This document shows positions 3,766 through 55,262 of a DNA stretch of 64,000 nucleotides, one piece after another. The notes under the pieces were generated by a model that saw only the letters and a program-made list of their open reading frames with translations, ran no database searches and had not been told where the DNA came from. The translations under genes and the position numbers were made by a program. This stretch comes from Gibbula magus (taxonomy: Eukaryota; Mollusca; Gastropoda; Trochida; Trochidae): positions 86,574,134 to 86,638,133 of the forward strand of contig OW388293.1 in NCBI GenBank assembly GCA_936450465.1, read 5' to 3'. Positions within the stretch are counted from its first letter, which is position 1. Every line of letters starts with the position of its first letter.

Positions 3766-4130
3766 AAAGGAAAAAGTAAATTGTCAAGATCTTTTGACTC
3801 TTGACGTAGATCTCAACTTGTTATACACTCCATTAAGTATCCTTCTTCTATTGGTCATCAACATATTTCCTACACGGTTCCTTTACGTGACATAGATGTA
3901 GTCGACCCAGACAGGTGTGCTTCATGTCTTGTCAGATTGTATAATTGTCAAAAGTATAGATAGTATAAGATAGCAACAATAGCTTAACGATTGTTACACA
4001 TCAGTGCATTTAGCATGGATCTGTTTATAGTTCATGTTCAACATACCGATGTTATGCAAGGAACTTGTTTATGGAGAATAATCGAAAACAAGAAGGAAGT
4101 TAGTTATGAACTCTATATTGCTTGTTGCAG

Positions 4131-4594
4131 GTGTGTTGTACTTCGTGAGCTCCACGGTGAACCCTATCCTGTACAACGTGATCTCACGCCGCTACCGCAT
4201 CGCCTTCAGGGAGACCATCTGCGCGTGTTGCTGGTCCTCCAGGTCGTCCTTCACCTTCACCAGCAGTGTGGTCAGGGGCTACTCAGACCGCCAACACAAA
4301 CACCCCATGGTGCTGGTCAACAGGGACTCGGACAGCCATCACGTGACATTCCAGGACGAGAAAACGCCCCTAAAGCAGGGTTCGCTGAGGGACAATTTGA
4401 GATCGAGGCTCCTGGAAGAGGGCGCATCCCGGAGTTCGCTCTCCAAAAACGGAAGTGTGGTGGAGAACAAGAAGAGATGTGATTCCTCCAGTTCTAATGG
4501 ATACATCAGTCCCCAGAATTCAGTGCGAGTGAAGGCGTACTGTGATGTGAAGGTATTGAACGGGATTTTAAAGAAGAAGGGATCGCACGTGTAA
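4131..4594 (+). CDS. Neuropeptide GPCR, last exon (TM7 and C-terminal tail)
   Basis: Terminal exon of the same receptor, entered through CTTGTTGCAG at phase 1. It starts [15 protein letters not shown], which holds the NPxxY signature of TM7 as NPILY. Helix 8 ([13 protein letters not shown]) is followed by cysteines (CACC) suited to palmitoylation. The 120-residue tail is rich in Ser, Lys and Asp and ends KKKGSHV at a TAA. NPILYN plus RYRxAFRETxC is what I would expect of pyrokinin/CAPA/neuromedin-U receptors, which couple neuropeptide binding to Gq signalling. The class is secure; the subfamily is likely but unconfirmed. GC content is clearly above the flanking AT-rich intron. Confidence 0.88.
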
Positions 4595-5330: not shown

Positions 5331-6340
5331 CCCATCATGGGAAACTATTCATGTTTCCGCTTATTGCATACTGAATATGCATAACCAATATTAATATGAA
5401 TATATACTAAATAGGTATATTAATATGAATCAGTTGTCTTCTCTAATCATCGCCATACTGTTGGGACATGACACTTGGCTCTATGTATTCTGATGTCATC
5501 TGTAGATCATATGCATCTTCACAAACGGCTTTCAGGGATAAATTATTACCTAGACAGTATTCGATTTTCAAAACAATCTATGACTGAACACATCTGAAAT
5601 CATTTTTCCCAGTCCTTAGAAGAGCCACAATGAACGCTAGTCACTTAAACTCGACGGAATCGGTATGACACATATAAACGATTGGTCTGCACCGGGGGTT
5701 TGAAACTTGACTTGATAGAGTCTATACATCAGACACTGACGGCATAGTTCGAACTAGGGTAATTACTGTAGTACTTCGTACAGACATGAACCAATCAAAA
5801 TGATATATACTTCTATTCTACGCTACTGAGGTTTACAAATGGGCTACAGGGATAAGTCACGGAGAGGGTGAGGTCTTTAAGTAGTTTGTTCTCCTGGTGT
5901 TAGGATTGATGTATGTTGGGCCAGGGTATAGCACACGCTCTTACCTTCCAATTACTGACACACTTGCACCTCAGTACAGCTCAAAACCTCCTCCCTGAGG
6001 CGCTGACCCGAGAATCCCGACTCTATTAGTGGATGATTTACAGTACTGCACTTGAACCAACCACGTGGGATCAAGTTAGTACGTTTATTCAACCGAACCA
6101 TAAAGAACATAATAATTAGCTGCCCTCGCACTATTGCTCACTATTGAACCTCTGGAAATAATTAAACAAAACAAAATGTCAAAAAATTACAAACTGGAAA
6201 ACTTATCTTAGTTCGAGAATCAGCAAACATCAATATAATAAAAATATGATAATAACATTGTCCTCATTGGAGTGTTATTTCGGAAATGCTTATAATGCTA
6301 AGCTCAAAGCAAGGAAGCAACAACTATTTTATTTTCTTTT
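5331..6340. other. No gene seen
   Basis: AT-rich sequence with stops in all frames. I see no exon, repeat or RNA here that I can support. Confidence 0.5.
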
Positions 6341-6415: not shown

Positions 6416-6701
6416 CGACTGAAAGCATTGATGTCTTACAAACAACCTGCATCTACATATTGTATAATATATATATTCATTTAACATCTTGCTGGACACA
6501 TATCTACACAGTTGTGAAGAACTGATCTTTAATATCTTGCTGAACACATATCTGCATAGTTGTGAAGAACTAATCTTTAACATCTTGTTGGACACACATG
6601 TACATCAACATACAGGTTAGTTCCGATATACCCGTCAAATTAAAATAACACACACAACACACCCACACCTACCTTAAAATAGGTAGAATCATCATCTGAT
6701 C

Positions 6702-6707
6702 TTTATT
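6702..6707. other. Empty target site matching the palindrome insertion
   Basis: ATCTTTATTAACGGAAA here is the unoccupied paralogous version of the site that holds the palindromic element in unit 2, where ATC-TTTATT precedes the element and TTTATT-AACGGAAAG follows it. It contains one copy of the 6-bp target. Confidence 0.8.
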
Positions 6708-8596
6708 AACGGAAACAGAACAGCCGTTTTGGTGTATCTGATCAAGATATTGTTGTCAATTTCCAATTTCTAGAATATCTGCTACTTGTATACATGTAAT
6801 TCGTTTTGAATGCCTAGCCGCAGACATGATTCCTTTAAACCACACTACAGAATATTCTGTTTCCCAGCAGCTGTTCCGATATGAAACACGAGTCATTTAT
6901 ACATTTTTATTACAATTCTTATCGATTGATTTCCAACATTGACACATATTTCGACGGCATGGATTTACTTGATTGTTATTTCTAAAAAAAATACATTTAG
7001 ACTAGCGTTTAATTAACATGTACTTATAAATGCATGTATGGACATCTCGAGATCTGGTGAAAATGTATCTTTAAAGCTTCGTTTGAGGTATTCTCATTTA
7101 GTCTAAATAATTTGTATTCAGCTAAAAGCCATTTAAATTTATTAAATTTTATTGGTCCATATTGGGAGAAAACAGTACTGAGTGAATAATCACTAGACAG
7201 TGATAAACACATATCTGTCGATTATGTTATTAAACTGTGCATCTGTAAGTCTTGTTTTATTCATTAATTCATTGAATTGTAGAACACCAGTTCATCATGT
7301 CTAACATATACGATGAGTGACCCATATCACCTTACAACCACAATGACTCATATTCTAGATACACGTGGATGGGATGGTCATTGCATGAAATGTAGGAGAT
7401 GTCACTAACATGGACATCGAACAAAAACATTTACTTACAGATGGATAGGAAGCTTGTGGAATGATCAGCTTATAAAGTTCAGTATTATAGAACTCTGGGC
7501 GACATAAAACACAATTGACAGTTGATGACTATCATCTCACAGAATTGACCAAGGCAGTTTGCAGTTGTGGCGAAATAAGGTATTTATAAACAGTCGGGAT
7601 CCAATACATCAGTCATGACCAGACTTCTGATTTCACAACGGAAGATGATCCAGATCTTACATTTTTCCTGTCTAGAACACCTCTCTTCAACTGACGACTG
7701 TCCAGATTTCTCCAGAGACGTTTCTTCCAGATTCAAATATCAATTCCGTCTTCCGGGACCATTTAGGCGCGGCGCTTCTCTATGTTGAAGGGATTCTGAC
7801 TTCTGGGTCATTTATCAAAGTGGTCTTCATCAGGGGGATACAATACCATGCGATCACTCCATATATATCTAATTGATCACAAAGCTGAAAGTAATTAATT
7901 CTTACGGGAAACCCTATTCATATTGATATACTTCTAACCCTCTGCTAGTCGATAGAATGTAAGAGCTGAGATCTTTTAGATTTTCTTTCCTTTATTACAA
8001 GGTGATAAACTGGAACAGGATTATAACTGATCTTATTACCCACAAGGGGAAATAACCGGTATGATGTTTGTCATACCTGCACCTACGCACACACCGGGTT
8101 TACCAGACATTCATTGTTACAGATCGAGTTTCCCTCGTCGTATGTGAACTGAAGTCATACAAGAACCGTGCATGACGTCACTCACGTGGACGTCACAACT
8201 AGCTACCATGTCTTTAGTGCCGGATATATCTGGACTGGATGACAACGACAATATCACAGTTGAAGGCGTGTCCTACGTAGGAACCCTCCTCCCGGCAATA
8301 CCCACTACAGACGTTGCGTGTCGTATGTCTTCTGCTATGTATATTTTATTGTGAACGGTTGTCGGTCACTAATTCAATTAACTTTCATCTTATGTTGAGT
8401 TATCAGATAAATCTGACAGCTGGTAATCTGATACTGGACGCAGCGACTGCATGTGATGATTATAGGTATTCCTGCGCAATACAGAAATTAAATATATCAC
8501 TGTATTTGAGATTGCAACATCGGACTATGTACAATGACTGTCTACATTCCATATGAAAGGTTTAATCGAATGAAATTTATATGACTATATATCGGA

Positions 8597-15643: not shown

Positions 15644-15649
15644 TTTATT
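15644..15649. repeat. Target-site duplication, left (TTTATT)
   Basis: Six bases directly outside the left AG terminus, identical to 22408-22413. Confidence 0.8.
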
Positions 15650-18253
15650 AGTAGTAGGGAGGCCTGCATAGTCTATTTTTTTAATACATAATCTATTTTT
15701 TTTTATTGGGCTTGTATAGGCTATTTTTTTTGGCTATTTCTTGGCTATTGTTTGGCTATTTTCTTGGATATTTTAATTAGGATATTTTTTGGATATTTTT
15801 TAATTAGGGCTTGTATAGGATATTTATAGAGTGGACCGAAAATTCGGTCAAACTGATTTTCTCAGACATGTCCAGACCTGTAGCACAGGTGTTCTCAGTG
15901 TCGTATATATGGTTTGACCAATTTAATTGTTAATTGAATTGACCGATTTGTTTAAAATTCGGTCAGACTGATATCATTGCTTCAGCCAGCTCCACACTGT
16001 CCTCAGATGTTAACACAGCAGCCGGCGAGCCAGTGTTGACACAACACTGGCGTGAGCTAGAACATCAAACACAGCAGCGGGCGAGCCAGTGTTGACTATG
16101 TCAACAATGTATGAGAGAGAGAGGGGGGATTAATGTTTAACTATGTTCAGCTAGCCCTCGTCTCGCATTTTCATCCCTGGGACTAACCCGTGTTTGGAAG
16201 ATTATTCTGATACAATTTTAAAATATATAGTTTTTTCACTTGATGATTATTTCTTTAATGTATATTCAGATTATTTATCTGGAGGAAAATAAATCAGCTA
16301 TTCATTCAATTTTTCATTCATCAGAAAATACAGTTCATTTACAATAAATGGTTAGGGGGATTTCAGTGGAGTAACTACATAAAACGTGTTAATATTGTGT
16401 CAATCTTATTTAGAAAAAAATGCTTAATTATCATGAGCTTTCTTTTTCACACTCCTTCACTTATATTCAATCTGAAATAAAAGACTTGCACTCAGTCTAT
16501 GCTATTCTAAAGTTGTAGCAAAATTTTGCCTCGCTGTTGACCACTTAGTGACCTTAGATGTCGAATCGGACAGGGAGCGTTAATCCTCAACACAAACAGA
16601 CTACGAACACTCCGGACTGAATAAACAAACAAAGGCGCGTGTCTACTGTGATTGGCGTATCTGCATGGAGTAAGCGGAAACATCTCTGGCCTATTCCCCA
16701 TATGTGCTGAAAATTATCTATTTTTAGGTAACGTCATATCTGTTGCTATGGTGACTTAACTGAGTTATGAACATAATTAGGGTGACCCCTTTTCTATTGT
16801 ATACCTCCTAATTCTTGAAACAAACAAAGGATATTCATTCATTCATAATAATAGAAATTATATCTTTTATAACCAAATGACAGAAAAAATTAATATCAAA
16901 CTGTGACTTTTATCATAAAACTGTAAACTGGTGTTGAAAATGATTTTTAGACATTAGTTTTCCAAAATCTTCCCCTGAAAATATATAATAAATTAAAAAT
17001 AGAGACATCAACTATGTTTATGTGTACTTCTAAATGCTTATTTATATCAGACTACCACTTGTATATGTGAAACTAGACTTACTTCAGTTTATGATTATTG
17101 ATGTATATCGGAGTTACTCCTGATAAAATTGGTTTGATATATCTCCAACCTTAATACACTTGACAATATGTTTACCTGTAAGACAGAACATTAAGTTAAT
17201 AATAAATATTCTATTACAATGTGTTGACGCATGCTATGACCATGAAACATGATAAGATATTACTTCTAACATGTACTAAAATACTTCAGTGTTGTTTGTC
17301 AATTCTCAATATATGTTTTATGTGTGGATGACAATACGTAGCCATTATATTCATAGCAAGTTATCCCGTTTGCAATAGTCATATTTAATGAGAGACACAC
17401 ACCCATGTGGTATTAAGTTTCACAATTGTATGCAATCAGGCTCTGTCTTGTGTAATATAAGTCTTTTAATGTAAGTTAAATAGACGCCACATTACTGTAT
17501 AGTATGTTTTATATGTCGTAGAATAGTTTATAAAATTCAGACAATATGGTGTTCAAATAAAGTATCTATAAATAAAAGATAAATAAGTCATCTTTAAGTA
17601 AAGCCTAATCCATCACGGCTGGTCGCATAATTGATTCAACTCACTAGGCCATGTCATTCACCTTCAGTGAACATGTCTTATTCAGCTAAAATCATAATGT
17701 TATCAAAAATGTCATTGTTCAAGAATAATGTTACTATTTCTATATTGAATCTTAAGGTGAATTCTAACTATATCGTATGAATGTTGAATTGATATTCTGT
17801 ATTACAATTGTTGCATATTTGAATAAGTGACTATCATGTATGTTTATTGTAATATGGACTTATGTAACTATTATTATTAATGGAGTTGAAGTTGTTCTGT
17901 ATTCTATTTATATATCACCTTTTGTATTGAATATGATGTACTGTTAAATATGTTAATGACATTTATTTGACTGATCATTCTGCTGTTTGTGTGTTAATTT
18001 TAGGCATGAAGACCTGGTACCTTTTCCCCATAGCGCAAGTTATAATTCTAGGCCGAAACTTCTAGCGAAAGCAAGAAGCAAGTTTTCAGTTATAAGAACT
18101 GAGAGAGCAACAATGAAAACTCTGTGGTCATTTTCCTTTTATCACATAATGCATTCTTCAGAAATGTAAGACAATGGGCAGATGAATGTAAATGCTTGAA
18201 ATGTCATTTGATAATGGTTTTACATAATTTTAGACAGTAATACTAAAGTTGAA
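15650..18253. repeat. Left-arm non-coding terminal region
   Basis: The outer 180 bp hold several copies of GGCTATTTT and GGATATTTT between poly-T runs, which look like terminal binding sites. Next comes GACCGAAAATTCGGTC (15834-15849), with GGTCAA/TTCGGTCA half-sites to 15970. A perfect inverted repeat follows, GCCAGTGTTG-ACA-CAACACTGGC (16029-16051), and its flanking CACAGCAGCSGGCGAGCCAG is repeated at 16069-16095. The remainder is AT-rich. Open frames of 64 codons (16507-16701) and 60 codons (17987-18169) have no recognisable features and I do not call them genes. The right arm (19804-22407) mirrors all of this. Confidence 0.7.
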
Positions 18254-18259
18254 TTTATT

Positions 18260-18298
18260 CTAATCCTTCAATTGTTGTGGTTGTTGTTGTGGTTGTGG

Positions 18299-18344
<46 letters not shown>

Positions 18345-18367
18345 GGTTGTGGTTGTTGTTGTTGTGG

Positions 18368-18419
<52 letters not shown>

Positions 18420-18433
18420 GGTTGTGGTTGTGG

Positions 18434-18467
<34 letters not shown>

Positions 18468-18469
18468 GG

Positions 18470-18518
<49 letters not shown>

Positions 18519-18628
18519 GGTGGTGGTGCTTGTGGTTGTGGTTGCAGTTGTTCATGTTTGATAGTCATATGTCGCTTTAGACTATCTGGCCAAGAATATG
18601 TCTTGAAACATACTGGACAGGAGTACAT
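18260..18628 (-). CDS. Palindrome gene B, left copy (C2H2 zinc finger + polyQ, 122 aa)
   Basis: Begins MYSCPVCFKTYSWPDSLKRH with one C2H2 finger (C-x2-C-x12-H-x4-H, residues 4-25), then a proline-rich joint and about 90 residues of Gln broken by Pro, encoded by CAA repeats. It ends QLKD-stop, and AATAAA follows the stop at once (18259-18254 on this strand). Its ATG shares the A of gene A's TAA, which suggests translation by termination-reinitiation. It is probably a nucleic-acid-binding protein; the precise role is unknown. The CAA tract is two codons shorter in total than in the right copy. Confidence 0.6.
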
Positions 18629-19023
18629 TATGCCTTCTTACTGTAACGATCTGGCTTTCCCTGTTTTGGAAGAGACTTCTTTTTGTGTGATGTGTTTTCT
18701 TTAACGTTCTTGTCAGGAATGACACACACTTTCTGTGCTCTCCTTTGTATAGCCCTTTCGCGTTTCTCTTGAGCTATGGCTTGCTCCACGACTTGTTGTG
18801 TTGGAAAGACAAAGTTAATTTTGGGTTGTTCAGAATAAGGCATGGCCAGTGCTTGTTCTTTTCGTTTCCTTTCTTCCAAAATTTTAGGCCATTCTGGATC
18901 ATAAAGCTCCAGTGTTCTGTCAACAGACAAGTTGCCGTGCTGTTCACATTTACCCTGTACTTGCAACATATAATAGCGAGTCCATTTCTCGGTGTCTGGG
19001 ACAAAAAGTTTATACTGACACAT
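18628..19023 (-). CDS. Palindrome gene A, left copy (basic 131-aa protein)
   Basis: I chose the ATG at 19023 because it aligns with the right-arm start; an in-frame ATG at 19029 would add two residues and overlap the right-arm ATG on CATG. The protein begins MCQYKLFVPDTEKW and carries GKCEQHGN, an ELYDPEW segment, a helical charged middle (EERKRKE, QEKRERAIQRR) and a Lys-rich tail ending RYSKKA. There is no signal peptide or membrane helix. Its TAA overlaps the next ATG (TAATG). I do not recognise the family; it could be a minor structural or DNA-packing protein of a virus-like element. The start sits exactly at the palindrome centre, so the original gene was probably longer at its N terminus. 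Confidence 0.6.
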   Translation of the reverse strand: MCQYKLFVPDTEKWTRYYMLQVQGKCEQHGNLSVDRTLELYDPEWPKILEERKRKEQALAMPYSEQPKINFVFPTQQVVEQAIAQEKRERAIQRRAQKVCVIPDKNVKENTSHKKKSLPKQGKPDRYSKKA

Positions 19024-19027
19024 CACC

Positions 19028-19423
19028 ATGAGTCAGTATAACCTTTTTGTCCCAGACACCGAGAAATGGACTCGCTATTATATGTTGCAAGTACAGGGTA
19101 AATGTGAACAGCACGGCAACTTGTCTGTTGACAGAACACTGGAGCTTTATGATCCAGAATGGCCTAAAATTTTGGAAGAAAGGAAACGAAAAGAACAAGC
19201 ACTGGCCATGCCTTATTCTGAACAACCCAAAATTAACTTTGTCTTTCCAACACAACAAGTCGTGGAGCAAGCCATAGCTCAAGAGAAACGCGAAAGGGCT
19301 ATACAAAGGAGAGCACAGAAAGTGTGTGTCATTCCTGACAAGAACGTTAAAGAAAACACATCACACAAAAAGAAGTCTCTTCCAAAACAGGGAAAGCCAG
19401 ATCGTTACAGTAAGAAGGCATAA
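19028..19423 (+). CDS. Palindrome gene A, right copy (basic 131-aa protein)
   Basis: Mirror copy of the left gene A, beginning MSQYNLFVPDTEKW. It differs from the left copy by Cys/Ser at residue 2 and Lys/Asn at residue 5, both beside the palindrome centre; I saw no other change. The two genes diverge from a shared CATG with no room for a promoter, which supports 5' truncation when the palindrome formed. The frame is otherwise intact, and the stop overlaps the start of gene B. Confidence 0.6.
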   Translation: MSQYNLFVPDTEKWTRYYMLQVQGKCEQHGNLSVDRTLELYDPEWPKILEERKRKEQALAMPYSEQPKINFVFPTQQVVEQAIAQEKRERAIQRRAQKVCVIPDKNVKENTSHKKKSLPKQGKPDRYSKKA

Positions 19424-19532
19424 TGTACTCCTGTCCAGTATGTTTCAAGACATATTCTTGGCCAGATAGTCTAAAGCGACATATGACTATCAAACATGAA
19501 CAACTGCAACCACAACCACAAGCACCACCACC

Positions 19533-19599
<67 letters not shown>

Positions 19600-19601
19600 C
19601 C

Positions 19602-19632
<31 letters not shown>

Positions 19633-19640
19633 CCACAACC

Positions 19641-19695
<55 letters not shown>

Positions 19696-19718
19696 CCACA
19701 ACAACAACAACCACAACC

Positions 19719-19758
<40 letters not shown>

Positions 19759-19797
19759 CCACAACCACAACAACAACCACAACAATTGAAGGATTAG
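19423..19797 (+). CDS. Palindrome gene B, right copy (C2H2 zinc finger + polyQ, 124 aa)
   Basis: Same finger and Pro/Gln tail as the left copy, with different CAA-run lengths (net +6 bp). This explains exactly why the right arm is 6 bp longer. The stop TAG at 19795-19797 is directly followed by AATAAA (19798-19803), an unusually compact, virus-like gene end. The valine and leucine frames on the opposite strand are shadows of the CAA repeat. Confidence 0.6.
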
Positions 19798-19803
19798 AAT
19801 AAA

Positions 19804-22407
19804 TTCAACTTTAGTATTACTGTCTAAAATTATGTAAAACCATTATCAAATGACATTTCAAGCATTTACATTCATCTGCCCATTGTCTTACATTTCTGAA
19901 GAATGCATTATGTGATAAAAGGAAAATGACCACAGAGTTTTCATTGTTGCTCTCTCAGTTCTTATAACTGAAAACTTGCTTCTTGCTTTCGCTAGAAGTT
20001 TCGGCCTAGAATTATAACTTGCGCTATGGGGAAAAGGTACCAGGTCTTCATGCCTAAAATTAACACACAAACAGCAGAATGATCAGTCAAATAAATGTCA
20101 TTAACATATTTAACAGTACATCATATTCAATACAAAAGGTGATATATAAATAGAATACAGAACAACTTCAACTCCATTAATAATAATAGTTACATAAGTC
20201 CATATTACAATAAACATACATGATAGTCACTTATTCAAATATGCAACAATTGTAATACAGAATATCAATTCAACATTCATACGATATAGTTAGAATTCAC
20301 CTTAAGATTCAATATAGAAATAGTAACATTATTCTTGAACAATGACATTTTTGATAACATTATGATTTTAGCTGAATAAGACATGTTCACTGAAGGTGAA
20401 TGACATGGCCTAGTGAGTTGAATCAATTATGCGACCAGCCGTGATGGATTAGGCTTTACTTAAAGATGACTTATTTATCTTTTATTTATAGATACTTTAT
20501 TTGAACACCATATTGTCTGAATTTTATAAACTATTCTACGACATATAAAACATACTATACAGTAATGTGGCGTCTATTTAACTTACATTAAAAGACTTAT
20601 ATTACACAAGACAGAGCCTGATTGCATACAATTGTGAAACTTAATACCACATGGGTGTGTGTCTCTCATTAAATATGACTATTGCAAACGGGATAACTTG
20701 CTATGAATATAATGGCTACGTATTGTCATCCACACATAAAACATATATTGAGAATTGACAAACAACACTGAAGTATTTTAGAACATGTTAGAAGTAATAT
20801 CTTATCATGTTTCATGGTCATAGCATGCGTCAACACATTGTAATAGAATATTTATTATTAACTTAATGTTCTGTCTTACAGGTAAACATATTGTCAAGTG
20901 TATTAAGGTTGGAGATATATCAAACCAATTTTATCAGGAGTAACTCCGATATACATCAATAATCATAAACTGAAGTAAGTCTAGTTTCACATATACAAGT
21001 GGTAGTCTGATATAAATAAGCATTTAGAAGTACACATAAACATAGTTGATGTCTCTATTTTTAATTTATTATATATTTTCAGGGGAAGATTTTGGAAAAC
21101 TAATGTCTAAAAATCATTTTCAACACCAGTTTACAGTTTTATGATAAAAGTCACAGTTTGATATTAATTTTTTCTGTCATTTGGTTATAAAAGATATAAT
21201 TTCTATTATTATGAATGAATGAATATCCTTTGTTTGTTTCAAGAATTAGGAGGTATACAATAGAAAAGGGGTCACCCTAATTATGTTCATAACTCAGTTA
21301 AGTCACCATAGCAACAGATATGACGTTACCTAAAAATAGATAATTTTCAGCACATATGGGGAATAGGCCAGAGATGTTTCCGCTTACTCCATGCAGATAC
21401 GCCAATCACAGTAGACACGCGCCTTTGTTTGTTTATTCAGTCCGGAGTGTTCGTAGTCTGTTTGTGTTGAGGATTAACGCTCCCTGTCCGATTCGACATC
21501 TAAGGTCACTAAGTGGTCAACAGCGAGGCAAAATTTTGCTACAACTTTAGAATAGCATAGACTGAGTGCAAGTCTTTTATTTCAGATTGAATATAAGTGA
21601 AGGAGTGTGAAAAAGAAAGCTCATGATAATTAAGCATTTTTTTCTAAATAAGATTGACACAATATTAACACGTTTTATGTAGTTACTCCACTGAAATCCC
21701 CCTAACCATTTATTGTAAATGAACTGTATTTTCTGATGAATGAAAAATTGAATGAATAGCTGATTTATTTTCCTCCAGATAAATAATCTGAATATACATT
21801 AAAGAAATAATCATCAAGTGAAAAAACTATATATTTTAAAATTGTATCAGAATAATCTTCCAAACACGGGTTAGTCCCAGGGATGAAAATGCGAGACGAG
21901 GGCTAGCTGAACATAGTTAAACATTAATCCCCCCTCTCTCTCTCATACATTGTTGACATAGTCAACACTGGCTCGCCCGCTGCTGTGTTTGATGTTCTAG
22001 CTCACGCCAGTGTTGTGTCAACACTGGCTCGCCGGCTGCTGTGTTAACATCTGAGGACAGTGTGGAGCTGGCTGAAGCAATGATATCAGTCTGACCGAAT
22101 TTTAAACAAATCGGTCAATTCAATTAACAATTAAATTGGTCAAACCATATATACGACACTGAGAACACCTGTGCTACAGGTCTGGACATGTCTGAGAAAA
22201 TCAGTTTGACCGAATTTTCGGTCCACTCTATAAATATCCTATACAAGCCCTAATTAAAAAATATCCAAAAAATATCCTAATTAAAATATCCAAGAAAATA
22301 GCCAAACAATAGCCAAGAAATAGCCAAAAAAAATAGCCTATACAAGCCCAATAAAAAAAAATAGATTATGTATTAAAAAAATAGACTATGCAGGCCTCCC
22401 TACTACT
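19804..22407. repeat. Right-arm non-coding terminal region
   Basis: Reverse complement of the left terminal region, including the GGTCAA half-sites, the GCCAGTGTTG inverted repeat and the AAAATAGCC/AAATATCC terminal repeats. I saw one A/T difference from the left arm (near 20,784 against 17,278), so the arms are almost but not perfectly identical. Confidence 0.7.
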
Positions 22408-22413
22408 TTTATT
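22408..22413. repeat. Target-site duplication, right (TTTATT)
   Basis: Six bases directly outside the right CT terminus. The sequence then continues AACGGAAAG as in the empty site of unit 1. Confidence 0.8.
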
Positions 22414-31756: not shown

Positions 31757-33586
31757 TCACAGGTGAAACTTTTTAAAACATTCACGCATGCAGAGGAACA
31801 CCTTGCACTCTGTACACATTACACAATACTTCCCCTTCATGTACCCAGGATGTCTGTTACGAGCAGCGTTCTGCAAATCCACAAATCTCGGCAAATGCTT
31901 TGCACCAGCTTTCTGACTGCTTTTGGAGGTATTGGGACTCTTTTCCGGGGAGGTTCATCTGCCACAGGAGTTGCAGGTGCAGCAGCATCTTCACTGTACG
32001 CTAGGAATTCTCCCACTGTCATTCGGAAGTCAAGGAACTGCATTTTGCTAGACGTCTTTTCTCTGTAGAAGATCCACGAGTTCAACAAACGCATGTCAGC
32101 CATATGGAAGATTGTTCTTACAGTCCATTTGCTTATGCAGGCAGATATTCTGTATAGAGAAAAGAACCTGCCTTTCAGATCAACACCATCCATTTTGTCA
32201 TTGTATGCCTTCACGATGGCTGGTCTTCTAACACCTATGCATGCTCTGTCTGGCTTAGACCAACACCTGCAATCGCCATCAGGATCGACACCATGCTTTG
32301 TTGATGCCAACAAAACTGACTTGTTGTCGTACCACTGAACAACTGAAACAACTTTAATACGAACAAGCTGATGAGCTGAGCCACGCCATTGTCTACCCAA
32401 TACTACATCAGGAAGAAGCTGACGAGCAGCTGCAGGGACAGATCTTTTCATTATGGTTCCTGTTCCATTGATGTAACTCCATCAGGTTATTAAACAAAGG
32501 CATGTTTGTGAAATATCTATATGCATGTACGCAGATGATCCAACTTGAAGGGATGAAATCAACCGTAGAAAAACAAGACCACCAACTGGCATGTATGGAT
32601 TATTTGGATCAAGCATCTGCTCTTTACCCTGGTAAATCTCAATATGAAGGAATAATCCACTTTGTGATGCAAGGACAACGTTTTTAACACCTGTTGGATT
32701 TGGCTTTTCTCTGATGTGCTGTCTCATTCTAGAGTGCCCTATGAACGTAATCATTTGCTCATCAACACATGCCGTCGAGGCCTAGGAAGCTGAAGACATA
32801 CATTTCTCACTTGATCCAAAAGGGGACGTACTTTCCACAACTTGTCATTGCGACGAACTTCGTCAGAAACATCAAGATCATTGACAATCTTGATATTTGC
32901 CCTAAGCTTGAAATATCTCGACTCATTGCTTGTACAGTTGCTGGAACAGCTCTTGCCCAATACATTAGAAAACGCAGACTCCCCATGATGATGCTTATTA
33001 ACAAAACTGCGTTTTTCTACAGGATTGGTGTCAAGGGCACGTCCATTCTTTTAAAGGTTGGTCACATTTGTATTTCTGGCGATCATGTCAATGATTTCAT
33101 CATTACAATATCCCATGAAAACATCTGATGGTGTCTTATCGAAATCTGGGTTGTTAGCATCATCTTCTTGTTGTTGATGTGCATTCAAAAAGTGGTCTGA
33201 TCCACCAATGCCACTTGCTCTTCTTCTAAACGGTCTCCCACGACCTCTGCCTCTGCCTCTTCCTCTTTCCCTTGCTGGACTCTGAGGAATGTCCAGAAGT
33301 GGAGTTCTCATCTGGTGGTGGGTTGTCAGGTTCCTGTGTTGACTCTGAAGATGAATCATTTGCTGATAGCTCAAATGTAGGGTCGCCATCAGAGTCATCA
33401 AAGCTTTCAGCCTCTGACATGTCACCATCAGATAAACTGATGTCTGAATCATTAAGCATCTGCAGGACATCTTCTGTATTAAGCCGCTTTGCATATCAAA
33501 TTTACTGTGATAATTCAAAATTTTAATGAAATCAAAAACATACCTGATGAAGTGAGCATGCTGTCTGCTTCAGCAACATCCGCCAT
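31757..33586 (-). pseudogene. piggyBac transposase, frameshifted
   Basis: DDE-type cut-and-paste transposase of the piggyBac family. A possible start is MADVAEADSMLTSS at 33,586. Then come an acidic N terminus (SDGDMSEAESFDDSDGD), a basic RGRGRGRGRP stretch, and a catalytic core spread over frames: KLWKVRPLLDQ, FIGHSRMRQHIREKPN, FEIYQG-like HIEIYQGKEQ, VQWYDNKSVLLASTKHG, AYNDKMDGVDLKGRFF and KWTVRTIFHMAD. The C-terminal cysteine-rich domain (GKYCVMCTECKVFLCMREC) is in yet another frame and ends at 31,757. At least four frame changes mean no functional protein. A GTATG donor and a CAAAG acceptor around 33,543/33,487 may be a small N-terminal intron. I could not find clean TTAA-flanked ends. 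Confidence 0.85.
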
Positions 33587-52169: not shown

Positions 52170-53613
52170 CAATTGCTAAAAATAGAGAACAGTCCATGCT
52201 GAGATAGGAAGTCACAATAGAGAACAGTCCATGCTGTGATAGGAAGTCACAGTAGAGAACAGTCCATGCTGTGATAGGAAGTCACAATAGAGAACAGTCC
52301 ATGCTGAGATAGGATGTCATTCAAGAGAACAGTCCATGCTGTGATAGGAAGTCACAATAGAGAACAGTCCATGCTGTGATAGGAAGTCACAATAGAGAAC
52401 AGTCCATGCTGTGATAGGATGTCAATCAAGAGAACAGTCCATGCTGTGATAGGAAGTCACAATAGAGAACAGTCCATGCTGTGATAGGAAGTCACAATAG
52501 AGAACAGTCCATGCTGTGATAGGATGTCATTCAAGAGAACAGTCCATGCTGTGATAGGAAGTCACAATAGAGAACAGTCCATGCTGTGATAGGAAGTCAC
52601 AATAGAGAACAGTCCATGCTGTGATAGGATGTCATTCAAGAGAACAGTCCATGCTGTGATAGGAAGTCACAATAGAGAACAGTCCATGCTGTGATAGGAA
52701 GTCACAATAGAGAACAGTCCATGCTGTGATAGGAAGTCACAATAGAGAACAGTCCATGCTGTGATAGGAAGTCACAATAGAGAACAGTCCATGCTGTGAT
52801 AGGAAGTCACAATAGAGAACAGTCCATGCTGTGATAGGATGTCATTCAAGAGAACAGTCCATGCGGTGATAGGAAGTCACAATAGAGAACAGTCCATGCT
52901 GTGATAGGATGTCATTCAAGAGAACAGTCCATGCTGTGATAGGAAGTCACAATAGAGAACAGTCCATGCTGTGATAGGAAGTCACAATAGAGAACAGTCC
53001 ATGCTGTGATAGGAAGTCACAATAGAGAACAGTCCATGCTGTGATAGGAAGTCACAATAGAGAACAGTCCATGCTGTGATAGGAAGTCACAATAGAGAAC
53101 AGTCCATGCGGTGATAGGAAGTCACAATAGAGAACAGTCCATGCTGTGATAGGAAGTCACAATAGAGAACAGTCCATGCTGTGATAGGAAGTCACAATAA
53201 AGAACAGTCCATGCTGTGATAGGAAGTCACAATAGAGAACAGTCCATGCGGTGATAGGAAGTCACAATAGAGAACAGTCCATGCTGTGATAGGAAGTCAC
53301 AATAGAGAACAGTCCGTGCTGTGATAGGAAGTCACAACAAAGAACAGTCCGTGCTGTGATAGGAAGTCACAATAGAGAACAGTCCGTGCTGTGATAGGAA
53401 GTCACAACAGAGAACAGTCCGTGCTGTGATAGGAAGTCACAATAGAGAACAGTCCGTGCTGTAATGGAAGCCACAACAGAGAACAGTTCGTGCTGTGATA
53501 GGAAGTCACAATAGAAAACAGTCCGTGCTGTGATAGGACGTCACAATAGAGAACAGTCCGTGCTGTGATAGGAAGTCACAATAGAGAACAGTCCATGCTG
53601 TGATAGGAAGTCA
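52170..53613. repeat. 35-bp minisatellite with higher-order structure
   Basis: About 41 copies of AGAGAACAGTCCATGCTGTG plus ATAGGAAGTCACAAT (35 bp). A variant monomer ending GATGTCATTCAAG occurs at about 52,316, 52,421, 52,526 and 52,631, exactly 105 bp apart, then at 52,841 and 52,911. From about 53,305 a second variant (CCGTGCTG) takes over. No open frame uses it. Confidence 0.95.
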
Positions 53614-54485
53614 CCCGATGTAAATTTCGATATTAACTTAGTTTTATCTGCAACATAATGGTTAACCTGAAGAAAGTCGAATTGAGAGGATACTCAAACA
53701 ACTGATTTCACAGTCACGCAGATAATTAAATTGGTCAGCATTCGATTGGGCATAGTTAAGGGCTGTTCATTTGAGTATTACGAGTCATTTTGCTTCATCC
53801 ACATGTTAGTTTCAGATGAAACATTTTCACATTCCGTTTGCTTCATTAGATCATCCTTCATCTGACGTGACACGTAAGTTATATATTAAATTAACGACTT
53901 CCTCTTATAAGTATATATATCTTATTGCATCTGCAGTGTACCACACTGGCATATGTCATCTGCACTAATCTGATCTGAAATACATTGGATTATAATGCAT
54001 AATAATAACAATTAATTCTTATATGAGTAATATATATTATATTAATATCATATTAATATAAATAACATATTAATTCTGAGGATATTTTTTTTATTAATGG
54101 AAGGACAGGCGGTTGAACATTGTGCCCTTTTTCAATCTACTTGAAGTGCTCGTTCCATTTGTGTTTTGGCAATGCAACAGTCAGGATTAGTGTTATGCGC
54201 ATAAGGTATCACTCAACATCTATCATAGTAAAACGGTTAAGGAACTTAACGTATCGCAGCTTGAGGTGTCAACTCAACAGAATGCATGGATGACGTAATT
54301 CACTGCGTAATGTCTTCTACAGCATTCATTATAATAAATTACCATACGACCATCTATGGTATGCCAACATTTTATAGCGTTGGGCAATTTTTTTTTATCG
54401 TTGGAAATAACCTATTATATTTGATAAATTCCGGCTGTTCAATGGTGAAATACTCTGCTCTGTCCTGTATTGGTCCGTCAAGATG
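53614..54485. other. No gene seen
   Basis: AT-rich, with local TATATTAATAT-type inverted repeats near 54,020-54,075. The stretch 54,415-54,480 is repeated in the same orientation at 55,440-55,505 (TTTGATAAATTCCG-CTGTTCAA), so the mariner remnant sits between two direct repeats. Confidence 0.45.
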
Positions 54486-54488
54486 ACT

Positions 54489-55043
54489 CTACCACAATCC
54501 CCAAAAAACAGACACCATGACCTTTCCTGCAAACTTTTGCATCTTGGCTTGTTTGGGAGGTGGAGCCGTAGCATGCTTCCACTCTTTGCTCATCTCTTTT
54601 GTCTCAGGATCATATTGATAAACCCAGCACCCATCCATGGTAACGTTTGAAGATATCCTCTTCGTCTTGTTCAAGAAGCTCCATTGCCTGCTGTGACATG
54701 TCCCTTCGATTCTGTTTTTGCAATAGAGTAAGCGGGGAACCCAGCGTGCTGACACTTTGGACATATGCAACTGGTTATGGAGTATGTTCTAGAGTTACGC
54801 GGCGATTTTCTTGAACCAGCGTCTCAACCTTCTTGATGACACAGAAGGTGAGGGGCGTCCACTTCTTGGCTCATCTGCGAGGAACATGTGGCCTGTTTTG
54901 AAATTCCTTTTCCATCTCACAACATTGTCATAGGATGGGCTGACATTGTCATAAACAGATTTCATCTCATCATGAATTTGACGTGCAGTATAGCCCTTCA
55001 AATGTAAAAACTTAATTACACTGCGCGCCTCAATTTTCTCCAT
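54489..55043 (-). pseudogene. mariner-family transposase, internally deleted
   Basis: Tc1/mariner DDE transposase remnant. The N-terminal part begins MEKIEARSVIKFLHLKGYT at 55,043 and has the helix-turn-helix region (YDNVVRWKRNFKTG), then EPRSGRPSPS, the linker typical of mariners. After a frameshift and a deletion that removes part of the catalytic core, a second part reads TMDGCWVYQYDPETKEMSKEW and GKVMVSVFWGLW, corresponding to the region of the second catalytic Asp. The last Asp and the C terminus are missing. Inactive. Confidence 0.85.
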
Positions 55044-55186
55044 AATAGGGGGTACTGTGCTTTTTTGGTCAACAGACGTAAAACTGGCTGTCGCGAAAAA
55101 AACTATTGTTGACCCAGGAACTAGACAAGGATCGCTTATGCTACAGTGACCATTTGGTCCGTATTCACCAGTACATTCTTTGTGAT

Positions 55187-55262
55187 AATTGAGTGAGTGG
55201 GTGAGTTATTGCTTAACAATGCTTCGGCAGTATTGCAGCCATTACCGGCGAGATATTTAATT
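55187..55262 (-). repeat. Truncated SINE tail
   Basis: GAGTGAGTGGGTGAGTTATTGCTTAACAATGC...CAGTATTGCAGCCATTACCGGCG resembles the tail end of the SINE at 31,145 (and the wider GAGTGAGTGAGTT family). The tRNA head is absent. Confidence 0.55.

What the first reader, a model, noticed from the sequence alone, without database searches (positions are those of the whole stretch)
15650..22407. A whole mobile element that is one 6.76-kb palindrome, integrated with a 6-bp target duplication
Seen: two 3.37-kb arms in inverted orientation with about 4 bp between them, AG...CT termini, TTTATT on both sides, and the uninserted site in a paralogous copy 9 kb away. Known: Polintons/Mavericks give 6-bp duplications and start with AG; genomes replicated by protein priming (adenovirus-like) can produce snap-back palindromic deletion forms. 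Inference: this is a defective, satellite-like Polinton whose replication collapsed into a symmetrical molecule that was then integrated using enzymes supplied in trans. I know of no described element of this form.
Basis: partly seen in the sequence, partly recalled or inferred. Interest (0 to 1): 0.92.

Follow-up and report, generated by a model that had tools for sequence, protein, structure and literature searches.

The report
Transposing palindromic satellites of a Polinton
A 6.8-kb stretch of an animal genome (probably a mollusc) is one near-perfect mirror-image mobile element, apparently made when a virus-like transposon's DNA copied back on itself, and a sister palindrome has spread to about a dozen sites in the same genome, so a defective mirror-image genome can become a mobile element in its own right.

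Summary
Confirmed and extended. Window 15650-22407 is a palindrome (arms 99.5% identical, 4-bp centre) with AGTAGT...ACTACT ends, a 6-bp TTTATT duplication and an empty paralogous site at 6702-6707. The host genome (1.47 Gb) shows what it is. (1) An 18,051-bp Polinton (PolB, packaging ATPase, integrase) has the same ends. (2) A many-copy ~7-kb satellite shares those ends; no polymerase, integrase or capsid gene appears in the six copies whose ORFs I listed. (3) Palindromes are built from one half of that satellite. At each centre read, the satellite sequence runs through a short natural inverted repeat and turns back into its own complement: fold-back copying. The window's palindrome centre is unique in the genome and probably arose separately. 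A second lineage, marked by one junction and one deletion scar, occurs at 11 loci (probably 12); the 7 whose ends I measured each have a different, exact 6-bp duplication, so palindromes move as palindromes. Arms of a copy are nearly identical even where copies differ, which suggests re-symmetrisation. It resembles a snap-back defective genome turned into a transposing DNA family. Protein-primed fold-back and helper-supplied enzymes are inferred. Ten searches of an open-access library listed no such element.

The parts
15650..22407 (.). whole palindromic element, 6758 bp
   Evidence: self inverted match 99.47%; length and ends
15644..15649 (.). left target-site duplication TTTATT
22408..22413 (.). 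right target-site duplication TTTATT
15650..19023 (+). left arm; matches the ATPase-side end of the ~7-kb satellite, minus the ATPase coding part
19028..22407 (-). right arm, inverted copy of the left arm
15650..15978 (+). stretch corresponding to the terminal inverted repeat of the parental satellite; begins (AGT)2
   Evidence: arm 1-329 recurs inverted at both ends of non-palindromic copies such as L009
22079..22407 (-). the same stretch in the right arm; ends (ACT)2
19017..19034 (.). centre: GAC-A-CAT / CACC / ATG-A-GTC, imperfect stem (3 bp, A.A mismatch, 3 bp) with 4-nt loop at 19024-19027; in the satellite the same imperfect stem is single-copy sequence beside the ORF1 start
19028..19423 (+). 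ORF1, 131 aa, 83% identical to a protein of the full-size Polinton
18628..19023 (-). ORF1 of the left arm, 131 aa
19423..19797 (+). C2H2 zinc finger plus polyQ, 124 aa: N-terminal remnant of the satellite's packaging-ATPase gene
   Evidence: Pfam zf-C2H2 E 4e-4, 21.1 bits, below its cut-off of 25.2; full gene in L014 etc.
18260..18628 (-). zinc-finger-polyQ remnant, left arm, 122 aa
18272..18552 (.). CAA/TTG array (polyQ), left arm; the ATPase deletion scar AATT|GTTG lies at its outer edge, after 18273
19499..19785 (.). CAA/TTG array, right arm, with the mirror scar at about 19784/19785
6436..6958 (+). diverged paralogue of the two flanks without the insertion (empty site, TTTATT at 6702-6707)

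Best explanation
The element is an integrated copy-back (snap-back) genome of a Polinton satellite. SHOWN: a ~7-kb satellite with Polinton ends exists in many copies; in the line leading to the window element the ATPase coding part was lost; at the centre of the window element the satellite sequence runs through a natural imperfect hairpin beside the ORF1 start and then continues as its own complement back to the terminus; the product sits between exact 6-bp duplications. A second palindrome lineage (stem AGGT/ACCT, 14-nt loop), probably formed independently, is found at 11 (probably 12) other loci. INFERRED: the growing strand, started at the terminus by protein priming, stalled just before an AT-rich (TA)n tract; its 3' end folded onto the short inverted repeat and the polymerase copied the strand back to its own start; the linear palindrome, with two identical ends, was replicated and integrated by the PolB and integrase of a full-size Polinton. 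Arm-to-arm copying or mismatch repair in the hairpin form keeps the arms alike.
For: Polinton hallmarks: (AGT)2//(ACT)2 ends and 6-bp duplications, the end motif reported for vertebrate Mavericks (PMC8097293, section 7 and passages seen). Exact 6-bp duplications at 23 of 24 elements measured; L024 is one base off in the AGT frame; for 18 of the 24 the ends were set by eye, for the other 6 by the AGTAGTA/TACTACT-type motif alone, and those 6 of 6 are exact. An 18,051-bp Polinton in the same genome with TIRs 97-98% identical to those of satellite L014 (90-94% to L026's) and PolB, ATPase, rve integrase, chromodomain and ORF1 homologue. Centres read against unit-length copies. Junction ATCTCGACCTCATTTGC at 11 places, reversed control 0; 11 of 11 palindromic, 11 of 11 with the deletion scar after GAAAAAG; ORF1 prematurely stopped in all 20 arms read, from 10 of the 11 loci; 7 of 7 with measured ends have different exact duplications. 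Outside the array, arms of one copy differ at 0-3 of about 1,080 positions, left arms of the 8 copies of like structure by 1-16, and three copies carry a further ~780-bp deletion in both arms. The window's centre is unique, its ORF1 is open in both arms, and its scar differs.
Against: No replication intermediate, particle or read was examined. Only three distinct fold-back points are known (two palindromic, one partial), so the stall-site idea rests on few events. 4-bp stems are common in the satellite (670 of 7,395 start positions), so the stems alone prove little. The window's centre could also come from trimming an older palindrome at a GAC repeat (my note read it so); one 1.4-kb segment groups the window with L011/L012 at 71% support, against a separate origin, while the ORF1 segment groups L011/L012 with L028 (72%) and the longer set groups that lineage with L028 (65-67%). 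Against full re-symmetrisation: array lengths differ between the two arms in 9 of 11 copies, L034 arms differ at 3 sites, and L012 (= L034) has a one-sided deletion at the centre. Birth of a palindrome inside the chromosome followed by mobilisation is not excluded.
Confidence: 0.85

Rival explanations
1. Assembly artefact: a normal satellite with inverted ends whose middle was lost by a fold-back read or a misassembled hairpin.
For: Fold-back read artefacts exist (recalled), and this assembly has one likely case: L010, mirrored together with its host flanks at 100% beside an N gap.
Against: In the window the mirror stops exactly at the duplicated TTTATT; the arms differ at 13 sites plus a 6-bp indel; 11 other loci share one junction and scar, and the ORF1 stop in the 10 that were read; the seven with measured ends have different exact duplications.
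Confidence: 0.03
2. Chromosomal origin: the palindrome formed inside the genome by break-induced fold-back or recombination between inverted copies, and later copies are ectopic duplications or were mobilised afterwards.
For: Break-induced fold-back also uses short inverted repeats (recalled).
Against: Each of the eight palindromes with measured ends (window plus seven) has its own exact 6-bp duplication and both transposon termini, which duplication of a host segment would not give. Formation inside the chromosome and later mobilisation by Polinton enzymes remains possible for the founding event.
Confidence: 0.1
3. Ordinary DNA transposon with unusually long inverted repeats (a foldback or MITE-like element), unrelated to Polintons.
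For: Long inverted repeats and target duplications alone occur in several transposon classes (recalled).
Against: The same ends bound an 18-kb element with PF03175 PolB, rve integrase and packaging ATPase; ORF1 is 83% identical to a protein of that Polinton.
Confidence: 0.02

Closest known systems
Polintons / Mavericks (polintoviruses, adintoviruses)
   Same: (AGT)2//(ACT)2 ends, 6-bp duplications, terminal inverted repeats of a few hundred bp; a full-size element with the same ends in the same genome
   Different: no polymerase, integrase or capsid gene found; the whole element is one inverted repeat; 6.4-7.0 kb instead of 17-18 kb
Snap-back / copy-back defective interfering genomes of negative-strand RNA viruses (recalled; only listings seen)
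   Same: polymerase turns back on its own strand, giving a self-complementary genome with two copies of one end; L013 resembles the partial copy-back form
   Different: DNA, integrated, inherited in a genome and transposing; resemblance in form and proposed mechanism only, not kinship
Symmetric adenovirus defective genomes (e.g. the palindromic Ad12-cell DNA recombinant SYREC; recalled, not found)
   Same: protein-primed linear DNA genome with two copies of one end as a palindrome
   Different: that was an encapsidated virus-cell hybrid in culture; here palindromes are insertions in a genome forming a multi-copy lineage
Non-autonomous DNA transposons (MITEs and internal-deletion derivatives; recalled)
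   Same: lack their own enzymes and, among the 20 regions fetched, outnumber the full-size element (14 units and 2 palindromes against 2)
   Different: not an internal deletion only; the second half is replaced by a mirror copy of the first

Membership tests
Polinton/Maverick (as autonomous element) | 6-bp target-site duplication | tested here: met
   TTTATT at the window; exact in 23 of 24 elements measured
Polinton/Maverick (as autonomous element) | AG/CT termini with short tandem repeat, (AGT)2//(ACT)2 | tested here: met
   window ends against PMC8097293
[quoted passage not shown]
   the only arm ORFs of 100 aa or more are ORF1, the zinc-finger ORF, and frames antisense to ORF1 or inside the repeat array; Pfam run on five arm ORFs found none; PolB found in the separate 18-kb element
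Polinton/Maverick (as autonomous element) | retroviral-like integrase gene | tested here: not met
Polinton/Maverick (as autonomous element) | capsid proteins, protease, intact packaging ATPase | tested here: not met
   only ORF1 and the zinc-finger-polyQ remnant of the ATPase gene are left
Non-autonomous (satellite) derivative of a Polinton | shares termini with a full-size element in the same genome | tested here: met
   window arm 1-360 is 97% identical to L017's left end; satellite L014 TIRs 97-98%; that element C12:37264660-37282710 has its own TSD CGTAGG
Non-autonomous (satellite) derivative of a Polinton | mobilised in trans by that element | not testable with these tools
   inferred from shared ends, equal TSD length and lack of own enzymes
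Snap-back/copy-back defective genome (by analogy) | junction where the parental strand turns into its own complement at a short inverted repeat | tested here: met
   window and L011/L012 centres against unit-length copies
Snap-back/copy-back defective genome (by analogy) | interference with the helper | not testable with these tools
   no expression or replication data

The most novel reading that the evidence does not exclude
A new kind of mobile element: a self-complementary DNA genome, born by copy-back replication of a virus-like transposon, that is inherited and transposes as a palindrome, keeps its two arms alike by being re-copied from one arm in its replicating form, and needs no protein of its own. 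It would be a defective-interfering genome turned into a heritable family.
Probability: 0.6. Interest if true: 0.93.

Novelty: new variant of a known kind. Interest (0 to 1): 0.88.

Why it matters
Here the products of what looks like aberrant Polinton replication are preserved as integrated copies with readable junctions: where the strand turned back, which inverted repeat it used, and what happened next. That makes protein-primed, strand-displacing replication of Polintons testable from sequence, suggests that integration works on a molecule with two identical ends, and shows that long palindromes, usually unstable (recalled), can multiply in an animal genome. It also reveals a stepped parasite system: an 18-kb Polinton, a ~7-kb satellite with its own diverged packaging ATPase, and palindromic derivatives that in the multi-copy lineage no longer carry an intact ORF1 or ATPase. 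Similar sizes (satellites 6.8-7.5 kb, palindromes with measured ends 6.4-7.0 kb) hint at a size limit such as packaging.

Tried and rejected
ORF1 had no homologue among 5.8 billion proteins at E <= 0.01 (11 candidates) and none in IMG/VR; the terminus had no exact match in IMG/VR; the ATPase had 600 pattern matches in IMG/VR but no confirmed relative; the arm had no match among phages; no Rfam family at gathering score and no tRNA in the window; no Pfam match and only weak PHROG matches (best E 0.033, zinc-finger ORF) for the arm ORFs tested (the zinc finger itself excepted); ORF1 had one weak, unconvincing PDB match (E 0.26). Reading of the centre changed twice: at first the CACC loop alone, then trimming of an older palindrome (note), then the satellite's own imperfect hairpin (note). 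Trimming of an L011-type palindrome is judged less likely (open ORF1, different scar, ORF1-segment distance 1.7-2.0% against 0.65-0.9% to the nearest units) but not excluded. A genome-wide count of unit-type junctions and of PolB genes did not complete, so copy numbers rest and are lower bounds. In one search the window's own arms differed at 6 of 1,080 positions because the segment ran across the centre; outside the array they differ at 3 sites. Host: only a lead. Among the 120 of 574 ATPase relatives listed, those named to species are bivalves, except one protein from a bacterial MAG, Candidatus Thiodiazotropha taylori; one window exon resembles a Biomphalaria neuromedin-U receptor. Probably a mollusc; species not established.

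Literature: searches; I saw only the rows listed (capped: 20 of 44, 20 of 2,416, 20 of 48, 12 of 21 and 10 of 12), and no listed title or abstract start describes a palindromic Polinton or transposing palindrome. PMC8097293: section 7 and passages seen; PMC4028283 and PMC10294476: passages; PMC11071308: term search without any hit; all others only in listings. Adenovirus SYREC and RNA-virus copy-back genomes are recalled.
Full report
OBSERVATION. The window element 15650-22407 (6758 bp) matches its own reverse complement from end to end at 99.47%. Arm against arm there are 13 substitutions and one 6-bp indel. The indel and ten substitutions fall in the CAA/TTG array; the others are 17275/20782, 19009/19042 and 19020/19031. 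The termini are AGTAGTAGG...CCTACTACT, flanked by TTTATT on both sides. A diverged paralogue of the flanks in the window has an uninterrupted ATCTTTATTAACGGAAA, with TTTATT at 6702-6707.

THE HOST GENOME HOLDS A FAMILY. The window lies at C5:86574134-86638133 of a 1.47-Gb assembly. A 600-bp terminal query gave 282 candidates, of which 40 were scored, with 48 matches listed. I fetched 20 regions. Fourteen hold non-palindromic elements of 6.8-7.5 kb (L009, L014, L015, L016, L018, L019, L021-L028). Their inverted ends are 255-409 bp in 11 of the 14, 186 bp in L026, and were not recovered as one long block in L021 and L022. Thirteen of the 14 have an exact 6-bp duplication; L024 differs at one base in the AGT frame. 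Termini are AGT repeats in most; L021, L027 and L028 have altered ones. In L009 and L022 one end has two AGT units and the other three, as expected if ends slide during initiation (inference). The other six regions are L011 and L012 (palindromes), L013 (partial), L017 and L020 (full-size) and L010 (probable misassembly).

THE PARENT: A SATELLITE. In unit-length copies the arm's polyQ ORF continues as a packaging ATPase: an open frame of 562 codons in L014, with Pfam Adeno_IVa2 at 22.1 bits (cut-off 21.0) and a C2H2 finger. The ORF from that start is at least 518 aa long in 11 of the 14 unit copies. ORF1 overlaps it upstream; across the 14 units and L013 it is full length (131 aa) in 13 of 15. 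I listed the ORFs of six units: five have a 335-343-aa protein at the other end, with two PC4 domains in L014 (E 1.4e-19), and L026 has two BIR domains (Pfam was run on L014 and L026 only). No polymerase, integrase or capsid gene appears in these six. ATPase relatives number 574 at E <= 0.001, 120 listed; those named to species are Mytilus, Mercenaria, Mya and Ruditapes, plus one from a bacterial MAG.

THE LIKELY HELPER. C12:37264660-37282710 (18,051 bp, TSD CGTAGG) carries a PF03175 DNA polymerase in two overlapping ORFs, a PF04665 ATPase, a weak adenovirus-protease-like ORF (E 9.3e-4, below its cut-off), an rve integrase core and a chromodomain, an ORF1 homologue and a BIR gene. Its ends are 97-98% identical to those of satellite L014 and 90-94% to those of L026. 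ORF1 of the window is 83% identical to its 155-aa protein, whereas the satellite's ATPase is only 41% identical to its ATPase. Its BIR end is 95.9% identical over 1251 bp to that of L026. L020 at C13 has the same left end and a 1769-codon frame that looks like the same polymerase by eye; its right end was not fetched. A capsid gene was not identified by Pfam.

HOW THE PALINDROMES WERE MADE. Reading the centres in one orientation, the satellite has ...TATACTGACTCATGGTGATGTGTCCTCCCTGAATGTTCTGAAGCAAATGAGGTTAGTCATTATCTCGACCTAATATATA.... In the L011 palindrome (C10) the sequence is the same (one small change in the loop) up to CGACCT and then becomes CATTTGCTTCAGAAC, its own complement: stem AGGT/ACCT, loop of 14 nt in the satellite. 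L012 (C12) has the same junction with a one-sided deletion at the centre. In the window the satellite sequence runs to GATGTGTC and then becomes AGTATAAACTTTTTG, its own complement: stem GAC-T-CAT/ATG-T-GTC with a T.T mismatch and loop GGTG. The mismatch 19020/19031 is the mismatch already present in the satellite's own stem. L013 (C17) is a partial case: at TTAGTC it jumps to an inverted copy of its left 1.54 kb, with a 2.7-kb single-copy middle, TSD GCTAGA and 25 mismatches in 1,532 aligned positions between its arms.

The three turning points lie at 5342, 5376 and 5389 of the L014 unit, just before an AT-rich (TA)n tract of 10-79 nt in 14 of 14 units. Three random points would fall this close with probability about 1e-4. 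This is only three events, and stems of 4 bp are common in the element (670 of 7,395 positions), so the stall-site model is a lead.

THE PALINDROMES MOVE. The L011 junction pattern occurs at 11 places, reversed control 0. All 11 loci are palindromic: over essentially the whole 3 kb held for 10 of them, and over about 2.1 kb aligned for L034 (= L012), at 96.5-99.6%. All 11 share the ATPase deletion scar after GAAAAAG. ORF1 is prematurely stopped in all 20 arms read: 22 aa in 19, 11 aa in one; L035 was not read. Ends were measured for seven of the 11, and all seven have exact and mutually different 6-bp duplications: GTCGCT, AACATG, TGCGCA, CTCAAG, CTCATT, ATTAAT, GTCCTA, with lengths 6361-6962 bp. 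For five of these (and the Polinton) the ends were set by the terminal motif alone. One search found 94 places with the ORF1-start motif (control 0): ours exact and the only exact one, the other 93 with two mismatches. Ten opposite-strand pairs lie 90-91 bp apart; nine are junction loci and C4:59.48M, not fetched, is probably a twelfth copy. Counting pairs as one locus, 12 of 84 listed loci are or look palindromic (window, ten pairs, L012); L035 is not in that list. Of the 72 others only those fetched were read.

ONE ORIGIN OR TWO. The window's palindrome has an open ORF1 in both arms, a different ATPase scar (AATT|GTTG) and, in a 1.4-kb segment, 1.5-1.7% distance to L011/L012 against 1.25% to the nearest unit; in the ORF1 segment 1.7-2.0% against 0.65-0.9%. 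Trees disagree: the 1.4-kb segment groups the window with L011/L012 at 71%, the ORF1 segment and the longer set do not. A separate origin is the better reading, not a certainty.

ARMS STAY ALIKE. Outside the array the arms of one copy differ at 0-3 of about 1,080 positions (zero in 8 of 11), while left arms of the 8 copies of like structure differ by 1-16. L029, L030 and L036 have a further ~780-bp deletion, as in L018-type satellites, in both arms. Some array variants next to the scar are shared by both arms of a copy; in L035 and L039 the arms differ there, and array lengths differ between arms in 9 of 11 copies. The simplest reading is that variation gained by one arm is copied to the other, in the replicating hairpin or by conversion in the genome; these are not distinguished here.

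MECHANISM AND STATUS. Shown: parent, helper-like element, junctions, palindromic copies with their own duplications. Inferred: protein priming (from the AGT repeats and the PolB of the helper), stalling, integration in trans. By descent the element is a non-autonomous Polinton derivative; by form it resembles a snap-back defective genome. It is not an autonomous Polinton: polymerase, integrase and capsid genes were looked for among the arm's ORFs and not found. No listed title or abstract start in ten searches of the open-access library describes such an element; listings were capped and most subscription journals are not held.

Noticed in passing
L014:3984-5672 (minus strand) and other unit copies: The ~7-kb satellites keep a packaging ATPase of their own, 41% identical to that of the co-resident Polinton, with a zinc finger and polyQ; possibly a way to divert packaging.
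   Followed up: partly
L014:6633-7664 and L026:6627-7460: Alternative cargo at one satellite end: a protein with two PC4 (single-strand DNA binding) domains, or two BIR domains shared with the full-size Polinton.
   Followed up: partly
L010 (C11:61228000-61237900): Element plus host flanks mirrored at 100% beside a 200-N gap; probably a misassembly.
   Followed up: partly
L013:1793-7646: Partial copy-back form: 1.54-kb inverted ends around a 2.7-kb single-copy middle.
   Followed up: partly
L020:480-5789 (minus strand): A 1769-codon open frame resembling the PolB of L017 by eye (Pfam not run) in a second full-size element sharing the left end; right end not fetched.
   Followed up: no
52181-53614: Tandem array of about 41 copies of a 35-bp unit.
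   Followed up: no
31837-32781: piggyBac-type transposase pieces (DDE_Tnp_1_7).
   Followed up: no
54489-55205: Mos1/mariner-like transposase remains (HTH_48).
   Followed up: no
4082-4594: Exon resembling a neuromedin-U receptor of a snail; the host is probably a mollusc.
   Followed up: partly
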